Positions 2,995-35,253 of a stretch of DNA of 43,813 bases are shown in pieces. The position numbers and the translations under genes were made by a program. Each line of letters starts with the position of its first letter. Positions within the stretch are counted from its first letter, which is position 1. The notes beneath the pieces are model-generated. The model was given only the letters and a program-made list of their open reading frames with translations, was not told the origin of the DNA and did not search any database. Source of the DNA: Elusimicrobiota bacterium (lineage in GTDB: Bacteria > Elusimicrobiota > Elusimicrobia > UBA1565 > UBA9628); contig JACQJQ010000003.1 in assembly GCA_016204945.1 (NCBI GenBank), forward strand, positions 1 through 43,813, read 5' to 3'.

Positions 2995-3974
2995 TGAAAC
3001 GAATCCCGCCGCTGCTTCTTTGCGCCGCGCTGACGTCCGTCCTCGCCGCTCCCCGATCCCGCGCCATCGAGCTCTCGCTCGAGGAAAATCGCGCGGAACG
3101 CGGCAGCGTGGGCTTCGTGGACATGCGCCGCATGTTCAGCGCCAGCCCCGACGCCGCGCGCGCCCGGGAGGGCCTGGAAGAGCTCGTTCGCCAGGCCGAG
3201 GAGAGCGTCAACGCGAAAAAGGCCGAGCTGCTGCGCCTGCGGAGGGATCTCGATTCGCTTCGGATCGAGCGCGAGGAGCTCGCGCGGTCCACTCCGGCGG
3301 CCTCCGTTCCCGCGCCGGCTCCCGTCTCCGAGCCGGCTCCCTTGATGCCGCCGGTCGCGCAAGCTCCCAAGCAGGCGGCCCCGGTCGCCGCGGACACGGC
3401 GCCCGTGACCGCCCTGCCGCCGGTCGCGCCCGACGTCGCCGCCTCCAGCGAGACGGCGCCGCTGACGATCAACCTTCCCGGGCTGACCCACGGGCCCCTC
3501 GATCTCGAGCGGCCCGCCGCATCCCCCCTGAACCCAACCCGCGATCGCGGCGCGCCGCCGGCCGCGCCGGAACCGGCCCCCGCCGCCCCGACGCCGGTCC
3601 CCGCCGCGGCGGAGCCCGTCGCCGTCGCCTCGTCCCCGGCGGCCGCCTTGCCCGCGGCGGCCCCAGCCGGCCCGACGCCGGCCCAGCGCCTCCTTGAGCT
3701 GGACGGCCGAATCGTCGCCAAACAAGGCGAGCTCGACCGTCTGCAGGGCGAGCTCGACCGGGAGCGCCTCGGGGCGGAGCGCGCCCTGCTTGACGCCGAG
3801 GGACGCAAAACCGACCAGGTCCTCGCCCGTCTCTACCGCGCGATTTCAGAGGTCGCCAAGCGCGAGGGCGTCAGCGTCGTCGTGGATAAATCCGCCACGC
3901 TCTACGGCCACCCGGCCGTCGATCTGACCGACAAGGTCCTGAAGCAGCTGCGCGGAGCCGCGCCAGCCCAATGA
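2994..3974 (+). CDS. OmpH/Skp-like periplasmic chaperone with an internal Pro/Ala-rich segment
   Basis: ATG overlaps the bamA stop (TAATG); signal peptide; [21 protein letters not shown]... N-term and ...[34 protein letters not shown]-term typical of OmpH. Confidence 0.8.
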
Positions 3975-5014
3975 AAACGCTGCCGAAGCCGCTGACCGTC
4001 TCGGACATCGCCGCGCTCGTGGGGGGCGAGGCCATGGGCGCGCTCGACCACGCGGTCACGGGCGTCGCGAACCTGGCCGATGCCCGGCCCACGGACGCGG
4101 CGTTTCTCGAGAACCAAAAATACGCGGCCCTCGCAGCCGCGGCTCCCGCGGGCTGCCTGTTCCTGGGTCCGGAGCGCCGGGACATGCCCTGCGCCGCGAA
4201 GGGCAGGGTCATCGTCCAAGAGCCCCGCGCCGCCTTCGCGGCGCTCGTGCGCCTGATCGACGCGCACGACAGGACCAAGATTCTTCCCGCGCGCAGCGCG
4301 CGGGCCTCGATCCACGACCGAGCCGTCCTGGGGCCCAACGTCGCGATCGGCGACTTCGCGGTCGTCGAGAGCGGCGCGGAGATCGGCGAGAACACGGTCG
4401 TCATGCCGCAGGCATACATCGGCGCCAACGCCAAGATCGGCCGCGACTGCCTGATCTATCCGCAGGTCGTCATCCGGGAAGATTGCGTGGTCGGCGATGG
4501 CGTCATCATCCACCCGGGCGCGGTCATCGGGGCCGACGGCTTCGGCTTCCTCACCGACAAGAAGACGGGCCGGCACGCCAAGATACCGCAAATCGGAAAC
4601 GTGATCATCGAGGACGGCGTCGAGATCGGCGCCAACTCGACGATCGACCGCGGCGCCGTCGGCTCGACCGTGGTCCGGCGCGGGACCCAGATCGACAATC
4701 TCGTTCAGATCGCCCACAACGTCCAGATCGGCCGCGACTGCGTCATCGTCTCGCAGACGGGCATCGCCGGCTCGTCGATCGTCGGCGACAACGTCATACT
4801 CGCCGGCCAAGCCGGGATCGCCGGCCACCTGACGATTGGAAGCGGCGCGATCATCACCGCGCAGACCGGCGTCATGAGCGACGTGCCCCCGAAATCCGTC
4901 CTGTTCGGCTCGCCCGGCCGCCCGCACCGGGAAGCTTTCAAGCTTCAGGCTCTCATCGGCCGCCTGCCGGAGCTGTTCGAGAAGATCAAGAAACTCGAGA
5001 GGCCCACGATATGA
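3971..5014 (+). CDS. lpxD: UDP-3-O-acylglucosamine N-acyltransferase
   Basis: Left-handed beta-helix hexapeptide repeats; position between ompH and lpxC; 4-nt ATGA overlaps. Confidence 0.95.
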
Positions 5015-27641: not shown

Positions 27642-30086
27642 TCAGAACCTGTACGCGAGGTAGGTTCCCACCATATGCGCCGTGTAGTCGTAGTTGCTGG
27701 CGCCCGTGGCGACGTACTTGGTCGTGTTTTCAGGCGTGGTGCCCGACATGTACGCCCCAGTGTTCTGGAAGTCGTTGAGCATGTACCAGGAGAAGAGGTA
27801 GTTCATGCCCACGGTCAGGTCCTTCATCAGCTCGTAGGAGCCCCCCGCCCGCACCTCGTGCGTCTTGTTCACGACGATCGGCCACACCTGGGCCGCGCCG
27901 TTGGCGAGCTTCGCGCCGCTGTAGCCCATCGCGGAGGCCTCCGCGGCGTTCGGGTTGCTCGTGTCGAAGCGCATGCGGCTCTCGGAGTAGTCATAGCCCG
28001 CGTTCAGGGTCAGCTTCTCCGGGATCGGGCGAATCTCCGCCGCGAACCCGATCGTGTCCACGTTCTCGGTGATGTCCGTGTTCCAGTAGTTGAACGGGTT
28101 GAAGCTGTCGCCGATCGTCCCGTCGTCCAACGCGCTTCCGACGACGTTGAATGCGTCGTCCTTGGCCGCGTTCTGCGTGAGCCCTTTGCGGTGCTCCCGG
28201 CTGTAGTTCACGCTCAGCGAGACCTTGTCGGAGGAGTCATAAGTGACGTCGACGCTTCCAATGAGATTCTTCTGGCTCTTGAACCCGAATCGCTCCGCCG
28301 CGCCGTAGTCATCGTTCTGATACTGGCCGGAGACGCCGAACGAGAGGGCTTCCGTCGGCGAGATATCGGCGCGCAGATCGGCCCGGTTGCGAACGCGGTC
28401 GGCCCAGTTGAAGTTTGCAAGTCCCGTGGCCTCCGGGTTCGCGGCGGTCGCGCCGAGCTTGTAGTTCTTCACCGCGCGGTGAGCGTAATGGTAGGCGCCG
28501 TGCAGCTTGGCCATCTCGATGGGATGGTACACGAAGCCCGCGCCGGCCCCGACCTCGTCGGTGCTGTCGATGCGCTGATGCTTATGGTTGTAGCGGTCCC
28601 ATATCGCGTCGACTTCAAGCGTCAACGGATGAACGACCTGGTAATCAACGGCGAGCTTGGCGGTCTGACGCGCGTAGGACGGCGTGTCGTTCTGGACGGC
28701 CGCGTTCTTGTCGTTCTTCACGGTGCGCCAGTAGGATTCACCGAAGGCGGCATAGCCCGGAAACAGGATGCTGTCGGATTTATTCGAGTAGTCATAGTAG
28801 CGGTACTTCAGCGACGCCCCGAGCTTCTCTGTCGGCTTCAACGTCAGCGCGAGGCTGTTCGTGATCGTCCGGATCTCGCCGTTGAAGCGGGACGCCGGCA
28901 AGGCTGCGGCGTCGGTCACGTTCGCGGGAGCGCCGTTGATGCCGGCGATCCCCGTGTTCAGCGTATACGGCAGCAGCAGCTCGTTCTGATTGGTCATCCC
29001 GTAACTCACATTGCCCGTGAACCGGCTGTGCAGCGGAAGCTCCACCGAGCCGGAGAGCGAAACGTCGTGGGATTGGTTCGACGGCGCCAGAGACATCTGG
29101 CCGTTGACGAACCGGCCGCGGTCAAAGGCGTTGCCGTTCACGCCCGCTTCGGTTTTGGCGCCCAAGTCGGTGGTGCGGAAGGGATTCGACCAGACGAACG
29201 AGCGGAAGCCGTTGTCGAAGTCCGTGAGCGTGTATTCCGCGTCGACGAGCCAGCCCCTCTTGTAGATGCCGCCGCCCGCGTTGAAGGTCGTGGTGCGGTA
29301 GTTGATCGGCTCAGCCAGATCCAGGCCGGAAACCACAAACTGGTCCTCGATATGGGCCAGCCGCCCCGCCTCGCCGGCCGCCTGGGGGAACGGCTGGATG
29401 TAGCGCTCATAGGTCCCCGCCCCAATCACGCGCGCGCCGTCGCGACGCTCCTGGCTGACCTTCACCCAGGTTTTGACGTCGGGCGTGATGTTGTAGCCCA
29501 TGCCCACGGCCGCGCGCTCGCGCTCGAGCTTGAAGCTCGTCGAGTCGGTGATCGACAGCAGGTTGCGGATGATCGCCTGCTGCGCGGCATCCTCCCCGGT
29601 CGTGTCGGTCCGGGCGACAGTACCGCGCTCCTGACGCGTCTGTTCCGCGGCCTCGAGAGCAGTCTTAACCGAGTTGGCTATTCCCAGACTGTTGGTTCCG
29701 GCCCCGTTGAGAATCAAGGTCCCGGTGTTGAAGTTGTGCGGGGTCCGGTCGAAGGAGGCCGCGAAGGTCCACTTCCCGTAAACGCCGCCCTTGATCCCGT
29801 AAGACGCGTCGTCGCGCGTCGCGTTCAGGATCTTGAGATCCATGTAGTAGAACTTGGGCTCGTTCTCCAGACTCAGGCGCATGTCGTTGATCATGAAGCC
29901 GTTGCTGACGTCGCGATACTCGGAGAACTTGTCCTTGGAGCCGGACAGGCTGACCGCCCGCCCTCCGATGTCGAAGTCGCCGGAGATGAGGGCCTTGGTG
30001 TCCTCAGCCGCAGCCGGGCACACAACCGCCATGAACGCCAGGGAGAGGGACAGCCCCACTCGGATGATTTGGTGTGTTTTGATCAT
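27642..30086 (-). CDS. MtrB/PioB-family decaheme-associated outer membrane beta-barrel protein
   Basis: Signal peptide; ISGDFDIGGRAVSLSGSKDKFSEYRDVSNGFMINDMRLSLEN; repeated amphipathic strands; ends ...AHMVGTYLAYRF; adjacent decaheme cytochrome. Confidence 0.85.
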   Translation of the reverse strand: MIKTHQIIRVGLSLSLAFMAVVCPAAAEDTKALISGDFDIGGRAVSLSGSKDKFSEYRDVSNGFMINDMRLSLENEPKFYYMDLKILNATRDDASYGIKGGVYGKWTFAASFDRTPHNFNTGTLILNGAGTNSLGIANSVKTALEAAEQTRQERGTVARTDTTGEDAAQQAIIRNLLSITDSTSFKLERERAAVGMGYNITPDVKTWVKVSQERRDGARVIGAGTYERYIQPFPQAAGEAGRLAHIEDQFVVSGLDLAEPINYRTTTFNAGGGIYKRGWLVDAEYTLTDFDNGFRSFVWSNPFRTTDLGAKTEAGVNGNAFDRGRFVNGQMSLAPSNQSHDVSLSGSVELPLHSRFTGNVSYGMTNQNELLLPYTLNTGIAGINGAPANVTDAAALPASRFNGEIRTITNSLALTLKPTEKLGASLKYRYYDYSNKSDSILFPGYAAFGESYWRTVKNDKNAAVQNDTPSYARQTAKLAVDYQVVHPLTLEVDAIWDRYNHKHQRIDSTDEVGAGAGFVYHPIEMAKLHGAYHYAHRAVKNYKLGATAANPEATGLANFNWADRVRNRADLRADISPTEALSFGVSGQYQNDDYGAAERFGFKSQKNLIGSVDVTYDSSDKVSLSVNYSREHRKGLTQNAAKDDAFNVVGSALDDGTIGDSFNPFNYWNTDITENVDTIGFAAEIRPIPEKLTLNAGYDYSESRMRFDTSNPNAAEASAMGYSGAKLANGAAQVWPIVVNKTHEVRAGGSYELMKDLTVGMNYLFSWYMLNDFQNTGAYMSGTTPENTTKYVATGASNYDYTAHMVGTYLAYRF

Positions 30087-30111
30087 ATAGTCTCCAATTC
30101 GTGTGCGCGCG

Positions 30112-31005
30112 TCAGCGCTGAAGGACCGTGCCCGAAGGGTGATTCGAGCCGTGAACCATCGCATGGCAGTTCAAGCAGGAGCGGTTGGTCCCGTAGACGG
30201 AGTTTTTGGCCAAGGTTCCCGACTGATGGCGCCCCTGCATGTGGCAGGACTGGCACAGGCGCGGAACCTTGATGGCCAGCATCTTATTGTTGGAGGACCC
30301 GTGAGGCGAGTGGCAGGTCAAGCAGTCTTCCTTGACCGGCGCGTGCTCCCACAGCATGGGGGCCTGCTTCTCGGTGTGGCACTCGTAGCATTTGTCGTTG
30401 ATGGACTTGGCCGCGATCAACTTCTCGCTGCGCGAGCCGTGGGCGTTGTGGCATGAAGAGCACGTCATCTTGCCCGCTCCGGACTTCGAGGTCGCATCAC
30501 GCAACGGATGCTTGGAGCGTTTGACAAGATCCGCCTTCACTTCTTTATGGCAGGTGGTGCAAAGCTCCATCTCGGTCTTCTTCGCCAGAAGCGTCTCGTT
30601 GCCGCCATGGACCTTATGGCAGGACACGCAGCTCTCCCCCTTGCCTGAATGCGCGCTTCCCGCCCAGAACATGCGGTTGCGGTCGGCGGAGTGGCAGGTC
30701 ATGCAAGTTTCAGACGCTTTTCCCGCCGTGGCCTTGCCCGGGTTGAAGATGTCCTTTCCGTCGCCGGCGGAAACGTGCGCGGCGCCGTCGCCGTGGCAGG
30801 TCTCGCAGGTCTTATCGAAGGCGATGTTCTTGATCTTCTCAAGGCGCGCGCCGTGGGCGGTGCTCTTTAAGGAGGAAGTCTGCTTCTCATGACAGCTGGC
30901 GCAGACAGGCGCCGCGGACTCGGCATGAGCTTTCGGATCCGGCACGGCCATCCAGCCGATCGCCAGCGCCGCCGCGATTCTAATCGTTATTCGACGTGTG
31001 TTCAT
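30112..31005 (-). CDS. Decaheme c-type cytochrome, DmsE/MtrA family
   Basis: Ten CXXCH motifs (CASCH, CETCH, CMTCH, CVSCH, CTTCH, CSSCH, CYECH, CLTCH, CQSCH, CLNCH); signal peptide; GAGGAG 8 nt before ATG. Confidence 0.93.
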   Translation of the reverse strand: MNTRRITIRIAAALAIGWMAVPDPKAHAESAAPVCASCHEKQTSSLKSTAHGARLEKIKNIAFDKTCETCHGDGAAHVSAGDGKDIFNPGKATAGKASETCMTCHSADRNRMFWAGSAHSGKGESCVSCHKVHGGNETLLAKKTEMELCTTCHKEVKADLVKRSKHPLRDATSKSGAGKMTCSSCHNAHGSRSEKLIAAKSINDKCYECHTEKQAPMLWEHAPVKEDCLTCHSPHGSSNNKMLAIKVPRLCQSCHMQGRHQSGTLAKNSVYGTNRSCLNCHAMVHGSNHPSGTVLQR

Positions 31006-31198
31006 ATTGATGCTCCTCGTTCAAAACAGCTGTCTCCGCGACGACACTTTCAATTTCATCGAGCTTTCGCGCCAGATTCCGGATGAATGTTCGAACCTGC
31101 TCCGGCTCGCCGCGCCACACGTCGAAGAATCGATTCACTTCGTGGGTTCGCATCCGGACGCCTTTTTCTTTGCCCTGATGCTGGGAGCTTTTCGTCAT
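30980..31198 (-). CDS. Small ORF (72 aa) overlapping the cytochrome start
   Basis: MTKSSQHQGKEKGVRMRTHEVNRFFDVWRGEPEQVRTFIRNLARKLDEIESVVAETAVLNEEHQYEHTSNND; first ORF downstream of the sigma-54-like element. Confidence 0.5.
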   Translation of the reverse strand: MTKSSQHQGKEKGVRMRTHEVNRFFDVWRGEPEQVRTFIRNLARKLDEIESVVAETAVLNEEHQYEHTSNND

Positions 31199-31222
31199 AA
31201 AATCCGTACACCATCTTCTACG

Positions 31223-31237
31223 GCAACACTGCGGCCA
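31223..31237 (-). promoter_or_regulatory. Sigma-54 -24/-12 promoter element TGGC-N7-TTGC
   Basis: Minus strand TGGCCGCAGTGTTGC: GG and GC separated by 10 nt; directly upstream of the small ORF/cytochrome operon and next to an NtrC-type regulator. Confidence 0.65.
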
Positions 31238-31282
31238 CCCGCACGCACGCAGAGATACGAGGGGGAATCCCAAAAGAATACA

Positions 31283-31308
31283 CGCCGGGCAGGGAATTAT
31301 TCCCGGCG
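31283..31308 (-). terminator. Hairpin CGCCGGG...CCCGGCG between the response regulator gene and the cytochrome operon
   Basis: 7-bp inverted repeat downstream of the regulator stop, within a larger ACACGC...GCGTGT repeat. Confidence 0.5.
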
Positions 31309-31341
31309 CGGCGCGTGTTTTTTCCCGACCGAGTGATGGTT

Positions 31342-32691
31342 CTAGGTATCGGCTTCGTAATCACGGAGCTTGTTGTAAAGCGTCTTGACATCAACGCCCA
31401 GGCTCCGGGCCGCGCGGGACTTGTTGCCCCCCTCAGCCGCTAAAACCTTGAGGATATGGCACCGCTCGGCTTCCGCGAGGGAATTATCCTTGGGCCGCGC
31501 CCCGGCGGAGGCGGTCCCCTGCAAGCAGGAAGCGATGTCCTCTCGGCGGATCGCCTCGCCCTCAGAAAGGATCATCGCGCGCTCGATGATGTTCTCCAGC
31601 TCGCGGACATTTCCCGGCCACGGATAGTCTTTCAGGGCGTCGAGCGCGTCCGGTGAAAGGCTCCGGCTTCGCGTCACGATGGAGGCGGAGCACTTCTTAA
31701 GGAAGTGTTCCGCGAGGAGCGGGATGTCCCCTCGACGCTCACGGAGCGGGGGAAGGCGGATCGCCACCACATTGAGCCGAAAATAAAGATCGTCGCGGAA
31801 TTTCCTCTCTTGAATGGCCTTGGGCAGGTCGCGATGGGTCGCGCTCAGGACGCGGATGTCGGTTTTCATGTTCCGCGTGCCGCCCACGCGCCGGAATTCT
31901 CCGGAGTCGAGGAACCTCAGGACTTTCGCCTGAATACCCGGGGACATGTCGCCGATCTCATCGAGAAAAAGGCTCCCACGGTCCGCCAACTCCACGAGCC
32001 CCGGCTTCTGGCGAGAGGCGTCGGTGAAGGCGCCCCTCTCATGGCCGAAGAGCTCGCTCTCCAGGAGGTTGTCCTGAAAAGCGGCGCAGTTGAGCGCCAG
32101 GAATGACTCGTCCCTCCGGGCGCTCTTCCGATGGATCATCCGGGCGATGATCTCCTTGCCCGTCCCGGTCTCGCCGGAGATCAGGACGGAGGAGGATGCG
32201 CCCGCCGCCTTCTCCGCCATACGGAGAGCTTCCTGCACCCCGGGATCTTCGCCGACGAACAGGTCGAACTGCGACTCCCGGGAAAAACGGCGATGCAGGA
32301 CCTCATTCTCGCGCCGGAGAAGAGACTCCGAGAAGGCCCGATCGATGACCAGGCACAGCTCCGCAAGATCGTACGGTTTGGTCAGATAGTCATAGGCGCC
32401 GAGCTTCATCGACTCGAGCGCCGTCTCCACGGTGGCATTGCCCGTGAGCATGATCACCTTCGCCAGGGGATGCTCCTTGCGGATCCTCTCCAAAACCTCC
32501 ACGCCGCTCTCTCCGGGCAGGGCGATGTCTAGGAGCACGACGTCCGCGCACTGTCTCGCCAGCAAGTCCATGGCCTCCTTGCCCTCGCCGGCATCCTGGA
32601 CTTCATAGCCCTTACGCAAAAGCTCTTTTTTAAGATAATGGCAGAGCTTCTTTTCGTCATCGACGACGAGGATGTTCGCTTTCCTAGGCAT
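31342..32691 (-). CDS. NtrC-family sigma-54-dependent response regulator
   Basis: Receiver domain [10 protein letters not shown]...[10 protein letters not shown]...LTKPYD; AAA+ [32 protein letters not shown]; Fis-type [28 protein letters not shown]. Confidence 0.95.
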
Positions 32692-34135
32692 CGCTGGAGA
32701 CCTCTCTGTCGTCCAAGGGAATGGAAAAAGTGAAGGTCGAGCCCTGACCGCCGCGGCTCGTGACGCCGATGCGCCCGTGATGGCTGTCGATGATCTTCTG
32801 GCAGATCGCCAACCCGAGACCCGTGCCCTTGCCCGCGGACTTGGTGGTAAAAAATGGCTCAAACACCTTGGAGATATTCTCCTGCAGGATGCCGACACCG
32901 TTGTCCTGGACAGAAACCGATGCATCGCTTCCCGAGCGCTCCGCCCAGATGCGAACCTCCCCGTCGGGGGAATTGTGGTCCAGGGCGTTGATGAGGATAT
33001 TGAGCACGACCTGCTTGATCTGATCGGCGTCCGCCTTCGCCCTCACGGGACGACTCGATGGGACAAAAACGATGCTCTGGCCCATCTGTTTGGCCCGGTG
33101 AGCGACCAACGGGATCGTGTTGCCGATCAACTCGTCAAGGTCGACTGAACCGTGACGCGGCTCCCTATGCCGGGCGAAATCCAGCAGCCCGTCCGTGATC
33201 GTCTTGCAGCGGAAGATCTCGTCGTTGACCGTCTTCAGGTATTCCGGGAAGTCCTCGAAATCCGCGCAGGCGAGAAGCGCGGGGCTTTTCGCCCGGTCGA
33301 GAAGGGATTGGGTGCAGATCGCCATGGTGTTGAGCGGGTTGTTGATCTCGTGAGCCACGCTGCTGGAGAGCTCTCCGATGGCGGCGAGCTTGCCTGAGCG
33401 GATCAGGCTGCTCTGCGAACGCTTGAGGTCGCCGATCATGAGGTTCAGGGCGCCGGAGAGGCGCCCTACCTCGTCTCCATGCTCATCCTGGGCCTGGACC
33501 TCCAGGTTCCCCTCGCCGACCGCCCGGGCGACGTCGACGAGATGCGAAAAGCGTTGCGCAAGCTTTACGGTAAGCCCGTACGCCACCGCCAGGCCGAAGA
33601 TCAGCATGAGCGCGGCGCCCACCCCCCACTCCAAGATCACGCGGGCGATGCGCCGGCGCACCGACTGTTCCGTCATCCCCACATGGATGCTTCCCAGGCG
33701 TCCTCCGAGCAACGGGGAAGCGATGTCCTGGATATGGCCCTCCTCGGTCGAGATCCTTCGCGCGTGAACGCCCCCCGCGGTGGGGCCAGACAAAGGGTTG
33801 ACCTGAGCCAGGCCCTTGGGAATTCCGCCTGGGAAGGTGTGGGCCTGTATGTCTCCGGCGGCGCCCAGGACATAAATGTAGCGTACATCATCGTAGCTGC
33901 GCATCGTCTGACGGAAAAGCTGGTACAGCGCGAACTGATCGTTCATCAGGATGGACTCTTCGGTGGGGCCGACCAGGATGTGCGCGACGGTCACGCCGCG
34001 CCGAGTCAGTTCTTCCTTAAGCATGCGGGAGAGGCCGTAATGGATGTTTCCCATGACGGTGACACCGAAGGCCAGAACCAGGCCGCCGACCCCTGCCATG
34101 ATTTTCAGCTTGAGGCTGACTCCTCTCCGCTTCAT
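32684..34135 (-). CDS. Membrane sensor histidine kinase (periplasmic domain, HAMP, HisKA, HATPase)
   Basis: Two TM segments; GELSSSVAHEINNPL H-box; N box ILINALDHN; DNGVGI, GKGTGLGLAICQKII. Confidence 0.95.
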   Translation of the reverse strand: MKRRGVSLKLKIMAGVGGLVLAFGVTVMGNIHYGLSRMLKEELTRRGVTVAHILVGPTEESILMNDQFALYQLFRQTMRSYDDVRYIYVLGAAGDIQAHTFPGGIPKGLAQVNPLSGPTAGGVHARRISTEEGHIQDIASPLLGGRLGSIHVGMTEQSVRRRIARVILEWGVGAALMLIFGLAVAYGLTVKLAQRFSHLVDVARAVGEGNLEVQAQDEHGDEVGRLSGALNLMIGDLKRSQSSLIRSGKLAAIGELSSSVAHEINNPLNTMAICTQSLLDRAKSPALLACADFEDFPEYLKTVNDEIFRCKTITDGLLDFARHREPRHGSVDLDELIGNTIPLVAHRAKQMGQSIVFVPSSRPVRAKADADQIKQVVLNILINALDHNSPDGEVRIWAERSGSDASVSVQDNGVGILQENISKVFEPFFTTKSAGKGTGLGLAICQKIIDSHHGRIGVTSRGGQGSTFTFSIPLDDREVSSDA

Positions 34136-35037
34136 CGAACCGTCGTGACCGCGGCTCTCATCCGGCGGACGCCCTCGTAGGCCGCGTCCTCCTCCTCGAT
34201 GAATCGCCCGATTCCCGCCTGGCCGAGCAGCGCTTTCCCCTCCGAATCCCGATGCATGCTCAAGAAGATGTCGCGCAGCCTCTTCTTTAATCCCGGATCC
34301 AACTGAGGGTGCACGACCACCGGAGGCATCCCGAAGGGCGGCGACCGATCGATCACCCGCGTTTCCGCCGCGGCACTCGCTCCGGACCGTGCTAGGCCGT
34401 CCCAGACGAGGCTCGAGACCGCGGCCCCGTCGGCCAAGCCACGAGCGACGGCCTCGATGGAATTATCATGGCCCCAGGTAAAGATCGTTTTGCTGAAAAA
34501 GACCTCCGGCTTTACACCCATCTTCGACAGCAAGTAAGCTGGATAGAGCTTTCCCGTCGTCGACAACGGGTCGACGAATGCGAAGACCCGACCTTTCAGG
34601 TCCGCGAAACTATGGATGGGCGCATTCTTGCGCACGATGATGTAGGCGCGATAGTCCTTCTTACCCCCGATCTGGGGCACGACCAGCGCCTCCGCTCCGA
34701 ACCGGGCCCGGGCCTCCACATAGGGACCGCTGCAGATGAAGGCCACTTCGACCTCCCGGTTCTCGAGCAAGGCGATGGCTTCGGAGTAGCCCGTGCGCTG
34801 AACCACCTCCACGGGCATGTCCAGCTTCCTGCCCAGATACTGAAGCATGCGCTCGTAGTCGCGGATATTCTTCTGCGGGGAAACGATGGAGGCGATGGCG
34901 ATGCGAACCGGCTTGACGAGACGAGGCGGGTTCCCGGCAGAAGGCTCGACTTGGGAAAAAGAGATATGAGGGTCCGCCGGATCGCTGTTGCAGGCAGTCA
35001 ACACGAGGAAGCATAAAGCGAAAGCTGGCCGACTCAT
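34132..35037 (-). CDS. PhnD-like periplasmic binding lipoprotein (phosphonate/oxyanion-type)
   Basis: Lipobox LTACN; VRIAIASIVSPQKNIRDYERMLQYLGRKLDMPVEVVQRTGYSEAIALLENREVEVAFICSGPYVEA; 4-nt overlap with the kinase gene. Confidence 0.88.
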   Translation of the reverse strand: MSRPAFALCFLVLTACNSDPADPHISFSQVEPSAGNPPRLVKPVRIAIASIVSPQKNIRDYERMLQYLGRKLDMPVEVVQRTGYSEAIALLENREVEVAFICSGPYVEARARFGAEALVVPQIGGKKDYRAYIIVRKNAPIHSFADLKGRVFAFVDPLSTTGKLYPAYLLSKMGVKPEVFFSKTIFTWGHDNSIEAVARGLADGAAVSSLVWDGLARSGASAAAETRVIDRSPPFGMPPVVVHPQLDPGLKKRLRDIFLSMHRDSEGKALLGQAGIGRFIEEEDAAYEGVRRMRAAVTTVR

Positions 35038-35144
35038 GCTCCCAGATCAGCAACAAAACGGCCTTTCTCCAAAAAATGAAGCCGCTTACACGCATGCGCG
35101 TTCTTGGCCGCGCTTTAGCCTCAATGAGAGTGCACGTCATCCCC

Positions 35145-35178: not shown

Positions 35179-35199
35179 CGCGCCCGTAGCTCAGTTGGT
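35179..35199 (+). repeat. Right copy of 21-nt direct repeat CGCGCCCGTAGCTCAGTTGGT
   Basis: Identical to 27539-27559. Confidence 0.95.
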
Positions 35200-35253
35200 T
35201 AGAGCGGTCCGCTCATAACGGATTGGTCGCCGGTTCGAGTCCGGCCGGGCGCA
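35180..35253 (+). tRNA. tRNA with CAU anticodon (elongator Met or Ile2)
   Basis: Full cloverleaf: acceptor GCGCCCG/CGGGCGC, D arm GCTC..GAGC, anticodon loop CTCATAA, T arm GCCGG-TTCGAGT-CCGGC, discriminator A; CCA not encoded. Confidence 0.95.

What the first reader, a model, noticed from the sequence alone, without database searches (positions are those of the whole stretch)
31223..31237. Sigma-54 promoter linking the regulator to the cytochrome operon
The minus strand reads TGGC-CGCAGTG-TTGC, with GG and GC elements separated by 10 nt as required for sigma-54. It lies in the gap between the regulator stop (31342) and the small ORF (31198); predicted start near 31212. This ties the adjacent NtrC-type regulator to the porin-cytochrome genes.
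Basis: seen in the sequence. Interest (0 to 1): 0.6.

Follow-up and report, generated by a model that had tools for sequence, protein, structure and literature searches.

The report
Sigma-54-like switch for electron-export genes

Summary
The motif is present exactly as described: minus strand, 31237-31223, TGGC-CGCAGTG-TTGC, GG-N10-GC. With an approximate canonical sigma-54 matrix it is unremarkable (7.8 bits; chance about 0.13 for the region), so the motif alone proves little. Comparison makes the case. In this Elusimicrobiota genome the form TGGCYGNNNYGTTGC occurs 15 times against 1 for the reversed control, and 240 against 42 in 35 genomes of the family; canonical TGGCAC-N5-TTGC is not enriched (51 against 80). 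Sites lie just before start codons of heme, cytochrome, PFOR, kinase-activator and sigma-54-like genes. The window holds a second site (35064-35050), 12 nt before the ATG of the adjacent regulator operon. Five related cytochrome loci carry a GG-N10-GC site plus a GGGAAnnnTTCCC-type dyad upstream, a likely enhancer (window 31292-31304). The regulator system is AioXSR/ArrXSR-like. rpoN is present only as two divergent sigma-54-like genes, with the DNA-binding domain but no Pfam region I (detected in 1 of 295 genomes sampled across the phylum). Activation by this regulator and the transcription start remain inferred.

The parts
31223..31237 (-). -24/-12 promoter-like site TGGCCGCAGTGTTGC upstream of the small ORF - decaheme cytochrome - MtrB/PioB porin operon
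   Evidence: matches lineage form TGGCYGNNNYGTTGC, enriched 15:1 in own genome
31211..31211 (-). predicted transcription start (+1) if the C of TTGC is -12; 5' leader about 13 nt to the ATG at 31198
   Evidence: inference from the sigma-54 convention; no RNA data
31292..31304 (-). dyad GGGAATAATTCCC, probable enhancer (UAS) for the response regulator; only copy in the window, 4 in the genome
   Evidence: dyads of this kind upstream of the cytochrome in L094, L096, L100, L101
31314..31326 (-). imperfect second half-dyad GGGAAAAAACACG, 22 bp from the perfect dyad (about two helical turns)
   Evidence: two tandem dyads 22-23 bp apart also in L096 and L101
31280..31316 (-). GC-rich hairpin containing the dyad; may also terminate the regulator transcript
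   Evidence: z -2.1
30980..31198 (-). 72-aa ORF of unknown function, first ORF after the promoter; weak partial counterpart in G016 (60% identity over residues 28-59)
30112..31005 (-). DmsE-family decaheme c-type cytochrome
   Evidence: TIGR03508 above cut-off
27642..30164 (-). MtrB/PioB outer-membrane porin
   Evidence: PF11854, TIGR03509 above cut-off
31342..32694 (-). NtrC-type response regulator (likely start at residue 78 of the 527-aa ORF 31342-32925): receiver, AAA+ with GAFTDA loop, Fis-type HTH
32684..34135 (-). sensor histidine kinase (sCache_3, HAMP, HisKA, HATPase)
34132..35037 (-). periplasmic binding protein, closest solved structures ArrX and AioX
35050..35064 (-). second promoter-like site AGGCCGTTTTGTTGC, 12 nt before the ATG (35037) of the binding protein-kinase-regulator operon
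   Evidence: counterparts in L094, L100, L101

Best explanation
31223-31237 (minus) is the -24/-12 promoter of the small ORF - decaheme cytochrome - MtrB porin operon. It is read by RNA polymerase carrying one of the genome's two divergent sigma-54-like factors, most likely the one on contig C50 whose own gene has the same kind of motif. Proposed chain: a ligand binds the periplasmic ArrX/AioX-like protein (34132-35037); the kinase phosphorylates the NtrC-type regulator; the regulator binds the GGGAA-N3-TTCCC dyad(s) at 31292-31326, about 60-85 bp upstream of the site, and uses its AAA+ domain to open the promoter. The regulator operon starts with the same motif (35050-35064), so the module is probably self-reinforcing or under a shared sigma-54-like programme covering heme and cytochrome genes. 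Shown from sequence: the motif, its enrichment and placement, the dyads, the gene order and its recurrence, and the sigma-54-like genes. Inferred: sigma-54 binding, the start site, activation by this regulator, and the ligand.
For: Exact GG-N10-GC site. TGGCYGNNNYGTTGC 15 vs 1 reversed control in own genome; 240 vs 42 over family f1, p about 4e-35 under equal rates, while canonical TGGCAC-N5-TTGC is 51 vs 80. Sites 11-18 nt before starts of two hemA genes, a radical-SAM gene, a kinase-activator operon, PFOR, malic enzyme and others, 52 nt before a cytochrome gene. Sites before PFOR-like, radical-SAM-like and kinase-like genes also in relatives. Motif or a close variant before the C50-type sigma-54-like gene in four genomes: own, L046, L049, L260. 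Second site before the regulator operon, with counterparts in L094, L100 and L101. GG-N10-GC site plus dyad upstream of the cytochrome in window, L094 (two tandem sites), L096, L100, L101; no variant site in L097 (regulator matches only in its receiver part) or in L095, L098, L099, which lack the trio in the stretches read. L012 and L015 (MAGs labelled Deltaproteobacteria) have near-canonical sites (CGGCATGGGGATTGCT, CGGCACGGGACTTGCG) in the same gap, with GTTTC..GAAAC dyads upstream. Sigma-54-like genes detected. GAFTDA occurs in the D. vulgaris activator DVU2106 (PMC4641369), and NorR G266D with this loop is active (PMC2941729).
Against: The canonical matrix score alone is not significant. 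The variant consensus was chosen after inspecting the own genome, so the own-genome count is partly circular; the relatives are the independent test. The sigma-54-like proteins have no Pfam AID or CBD match and are far below the NCBIfam rpoN cut-offs. L101's regulator has lost the GAFTGA loop and L100's has no AAA+ domain, yet both loci keep similar sites, so in those genomes another activator, or none, must act. In the crude start-codon test the site-forward side (20 of 40) is only modestly above the opposite side (15 of 40); random positions give 17%. Many sites lie so close to the ATG that Shine-Dalgarno-like bases would fall upstream of the expected +1. No expression data.
Confidence: 0.72

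Rival explanations
1. The site is a sigma-54-like promoter, but the activator is a general one (such as the kinase-activator pair beside the C50 sigma-54-like gene). The neighbouring regulator either fine-tunes through the dyad or has lost sigma-54 activation.
For: At least a dozen probable promoters were located but only about four clear activators are in the genome. Regulators of L100 and L101 cannot contact sigma-54 yet their loci keep sites and dyads. Loop is GAFTDA here.
Against: The AAA+ domain is intact and strongly matched in the window and L094, and L096 has GAFTGA. A dyad recurs upstream of the cytochrome in all five loci. GAFTDA is known in an activator.
Confidence: 0.25
2. TGGCYGNNNYGTTGC is the operator of another DNA-binding protein, and the operon is transcribed by a sigma-70-type polymerase.
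For: Sites are very close to start codons; the -24 half differs from the sigma-54 consensus; L100 and L101 regulators cannot act on sigma-54.
Against: The invariant GG and GC exactly 10 nt apart are the sigma-54 signature; the motif is asymmetric; it or a close variant precedes the C50-type sigma-54-like gene in four genomes; L012 and L015 have near-canonical sigma-54 sites at the same place. No sigma-70-like site was found in 31020-31340.
Confidence: 0.13
3. Chance match; the operon is read through from the regulator or from an unrecognised promoter.
For: Canonical matrix p about 0.13 for the region.
Against: Genus relative G016 has two tandem copies at the orthologous place; 15:1 enrichment; the hairpin after the regulator would hinder read-through.
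Confidence: 0.05

Closest known systems
AioXSR / ArxXSR three-component control of arsenite oxidase (PMC5908839)
   Same: PhnD-like periplasmic sensor, kinase and AtoC/NtrC-type regulator in a row; RpoN promoter plus regulator site upstream of the controlled respiratory genes
   Different: Controls a decaheme cytochrome-porin conduit instead of a molybdenum oxidoreductase; sensor is closer to ArrX; one pocket Asp replaced by Ser; -24 element differs
ArrXSR (arsenate respiration)
   Same: Closest solved binding protein is ArrX (6x6b)
   Different: ArrR is a CitB-like regulator without AAA+ (PMC5908839); here the regulator is NtrC-type
Canonical sigma-54 promoter (TGGCACG-N4-TTGCW)
   Same: TGGC and TTGC with GG-N10-GC spacing; upstream dyad
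   Different: YG in place of the AC(G) after TGGC, YG before TTGC, often no A/T after TTGC; many sites only 11-18 nt from the start codon
DmsE/MtrB and GSU2203-type porin-cytochrome clusters
   Same: DmsE-family decaheme cytochrome followed by MtrB/PioB porin
   Different: No outer-surface cytochrome gene seen next to it; linked to a binding protein-kinase-regulator trio

Membership tests
Sigma-54-dependent promoter | GG and GC separated by 10 nt, TGGC/TTGC core | tested here: met
Sigma-54-dependent promoter | Extended consensus TGGCACGNNNNTTGCW | tested here: not met
   CGC in place of ACG, C in place of W; canonical form not enriched in this genome or family
Sigma-54-dependent promoter | Sigma-54 gene in the genome | tested here: met
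   Two Sigma54_DBD proteins over the Pfam cut-off, both divergent
Sigma-54-dependent promoter | AAA+ activator with GAFTGA loop | tested here: inconclusive
   PF00158 E 6e-66, loop GAFTDA; the same loop is in DVU2106 and in active NorR G266D
Sigma-54-dependent promoter | Upstream activator-binding dyads | tested here: met
   GGGAANNNTTCCC-type dyads conserved upstream; binding not tested
Sigma-54-dependent promoter | TSS about 12 nt after GC, ATP/activator dependence | not testable with these tools
   needs RNA or in vitro transcription
RpoN (sigma-54) protein, for the C50 and C9 gene products | DNA-binding domain PF04552 | tested here: met
   51.0 and 38.6 bits against cut-off 22.8; weak similarity to RpoN 5ui5
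RpoN (sigma-54) protein, for the C50 and C9 gene products | Activator-interacting region I PF00309 and core-binding domain PF04963 | tested here: not met
   No Pfam match; AID in 0 of 58 relatives and 1 of 295 sampled genomes of the phylum. A region-I-like N-terminus aligns among the relatives
AioXSR/ArrXSR sensor systems | ArrX/AioX-type binding protein next to kinase and regulator | tested here: met
AioXSR/ArrXSR sensor systems | AioX pocket residues Tyr88, Cys106, Tyr131, Ser161, Ser163, His192, Asp210 | tested here: inconclusive
   Read by eye and PMC5908839: Cys, Tyr, Ser161 and His positions kept, Ser163 to Thr, Asp210 to Ser
AioXSR/ArrXSR sensor systems | Adjacent arsenic oxidase or arsenate reductase genes | tested here: not met
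   Adjacent genes are cytochrome and porin; other window genes examined are housekeeping or unassigned
DmsE/MtrB porin-cytochrome module | Decaheme cytochrome and MtrB/PioB porin models above cut-off | tested here: met

The most novel reading that the evidence does not exclude
Elusimicrobiota of this family use a rewired sigma-54 system: divergent sigma-54-like factors without a recognisable region I read a shifted promoter code (TGGCYGNNNYGTTGC), often giving nearly leaderless mRNAs, and through it control heme synthesis, pyruvate metabolism and extracellular electron transfer, one branch being gated by an arsenic-sensor-like three-component system.
Probability: 0.45. Interest if true: 0.68.

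Novelty: new variant of a known kind. Interest (0 to 1): 0.52.

Why it matters
A 2011 survey listed sigma-54 as absent from Elusimicrobium minutum (PMC3162934), the one Elusimicrobiota species it names. Here the phylum appears to hold divergent sigma-54-like factors with their own promoter code, and a full-text search for Elusimicrobia with sigma-54 found no account of it. If true, it shows how the sigma and its promoter can change together, and gives a testable control circuit (sensor, regulator, enhancer, promoter) for electron export in an uncultured lineage. It also gives a motif for predicting the regulon in many metagenome-assembled genomes.

Tried and rejected
Canonical sigma-54 matrix alone: not significant for this site. 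Sigma-70 scan: one weak site at 31004-30977, inside the cytochrome gene, with 0.5 expected by chance. Hairpin as terminator only: rejected as the sole role, because L100 and L101 keep dyads upstream of the cytochrome although their regulator genes lie downstream. Small ORF as a probe for homologous loci: only weak hits. Simple codon-based gene caller: unreliable, it missed the regulator and the cytochrome, so ORF-based checks were used. Spacing test on fetched contigs (14 at N3 against 0-4 at other spacings) is biased because contigs were chosen for hits with that spacing; the whole-genome counts are used instead. Absence of Sigma54_DBD in 5 of 58 genomes did not separate motif counts cleanly. 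Structure prediction of the sigma-54-like proteins was not run.

Full report
What was claimed.

Observation. The letters and coordinates are correct. The site lies between the regulator stop at 31342 and the ATG at 31198 of a 72-aa ORF. Then follow a DmsE-family decaheme cytochrome (30112-31005) and an MtrB/PioB porin (27642-30164). With an approximate canonical matrix (weights set from the published consensus, not a published table) the best hit in the region is this site at 7.8 bits, but 13% of shuffled regions do as well. The motif alone is therefore weak evidence. TGGCN7TTGC occurs 119 times in the genome on both strands, so about 0.003 are expected in the 143-nt gap.

Neighbourhood. Upstream on the same strand are a periplasmic binding protein (PF12974), a histidine kinase and the regulator, with overlapping ends. 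The binding protein's best solved relatives are ArrX (8e-47) and AioX (4e-35), so the trio resembles the XSR systems of PMC5908839, in which AioR binds upstream of an RpoN promoter. The trio sits next to the cytochrome-porin pair also in other Elusimicrobia and in MAGs labelled Deltaproteobacteria or Geobacter.

Organism and sigma factor. The closest loci are Elusimicrobia MAGs. The genome has two proteins with the sigma-54 DNA-binding domain over the Pfam cut-off, on contigs C50 and C9, with weak similarity to RpoN in 5ui5. Neither matches region I (PF00309) or the core-binding domain, and both are far below the NCBIfam rpoN cut-offs. Region I is not detected in any of 58 relatives and in only 1 of 295 genomes sampled across the phylum, while 53 of 58 relatives have the DNA-binding domain. 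An alignment shows a shared N-terminus that looks like a diverged region I, and RpoN-box-like ends (SRRTVNAVR, SRRSITQYR; SRPSIIQYR in the own C9 protein).

A lineage-specific promoter code. Inspection of TGGCN7TTGC matches in the own genome suggested TGGCYGNNNYGTTGC. Because the form was chosen after looking at the own genome, the own-genome count (15 against 1 for the reversed pattern) is partly circular; the other 57 genomes are the independent test. Over the 35 genomes of family f1, own genome included, it is 240 against 42. The canonical form TGGCAC-N5-TTGC is 51 against 80 there. In families f4-f12 the variant is not enriched (16 against 15), while one genome there, G049, has 10 canonical sites against 0.

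Where the sites lie. In the own genome they precede a kinase-activator operon (18 nt from TTGC to ATG), two glutamyl-tRNA reductase genes (15, for a close variant, and 16 nt), a radical-SAM gene (12), a pyruvate:ferredoxin oxidoreductase (11), a malic enzyme (13), a response regulator (13, close variant), a cytochrome (52), a short-chain dehydrogenase (41) and the C50 sigma-54-like gene (30, close variant). Several others are inside genes and look like chance. In relatives, sites precede radical-SAM-like, kinase-like, PFOR-like and sigma-54-like genes (identified by their first residues only) at 10-42 nt. Forward starts were found for 20 of 40 sites, opposite-strand starts for 15, random positions 17%, so the orientation signal in this crude test is modest. 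The C50-type sigma-54-like gene carries the motif or a close variant in four genomes (own, L046, L049, L260). If +1 is 12 nt after the GC, many transcripts would have leaders of only 0-7 nt.

The window's own second site. AGGCCGTTTTGTTGC at 35064-35050 is followed by 12 nt and the ATG of the binding-protein gene; L094 (GGGCCGTTTTGTTGC, 13 nt), L100 (TGGCCGGAGCGTTGC) and L101 (CGGCAATTCCGTTGC) show the same. The regulator operon thus seems to be under the same kind of promoter.

Enhancer. GGGAATAATTCCC (31292-31304) is the only perfect copy in the window and one of four in the genome. Dyads of this kind lie upstream of the cytochrome site in L094, L096, L100 and L101; L096 and L101 have two tandem dyads 22-23 bp apart, and the window and L094 have a perfect dyad plus an imperfect half about 22 bp away. 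In L100 and L101 the regulator lies downstream of the porin, so there the dyad cannot be the regulator's terminator. In the window the same bases also form a hairpin and may serve both roles.

Controls among relatives. L097 has the trio with a regulator that matches only in its receiver part, and no such site; L095, L098 and L099 lack the trio in the stretches read, and the site. L012 and L015 have near-canonical sites with GTTTC..GAAAC dyads upstream.

The regulator's loop. The window and L094 have GAFTDA, L096 GAFTGA; L101 has lost the loop and L100 has no AAA+ domain. GAFTDA is listed for the D. vulgaris activator DVU2106 and considered compatible with activation (PMC4641369); the equivalent NorR mutant G266D is active, even constitutively (PMC2941729). 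Activation by this regulator is therefore plausible but is the weakest link.

Verdict. The site is very probably a genuine promoter of a variant sigma-54 type. The link to the adjacent regulator is supported by the conserved dyad and gene order, and is inferred rather than shown. It is a new variant of a known kind.

Noticed in passing
window 35050-35064 (-): Same promoter-like motif directly before the binding protein-kinase-regulator operon, 12 nt from its ATG; not in the finding.
   Followed up: yes
L108 (G000 C50) 1769-1783 and 1814-2896; L107 (G000 C9) 3533-4822: Two divergent sigma-54-like genes without Pfam region I, each near a kinase and/or an activator gene; the C50 gene carries a close variant of the motif in its own promoter.
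   Followed up: partly
L106 (C109), L109 (C123), L196 (C95), L189 (C7): Sites 11-18 nt before start codons would imply nearly leaderless sigma-54 transcripts, yet some spacers hold Shine-Dalgarno-like bases that would then lie upstream of +1. Unexplained.
   Followed up: partly
L100 3300-3908; L101 4733-6028: Regulators of two related trios have lost sigma-54 activation (no AAA+ domain; no GAFTGA loop) while site and dyads remain.
   Followed up: partly
L229 and L244; L230 and L245: Pairs of variant sites in G016 and G003 share similar downstream sequence without an evident protein-coding start; possibly small RNAs.
   Followed up: no
window 30980-31198 (-): 72-aa ORF with a partial counterpart in G016 (EPE..R..IR.LARKLDE.E) that is in frame with the cytochrome there and lacks a clear start.
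   Followed up: partly
G019:C40:86980-87096: Weak hit of the 72-aa ORF about 430 nt upstream of another DmsE-like cytochrome gene.
   Followed up: no
window 35180-35253 (+): tRNA-Met (CAT) between the regulator operon and a divergent nucleotidyltransferase gene.
   Followed up: no
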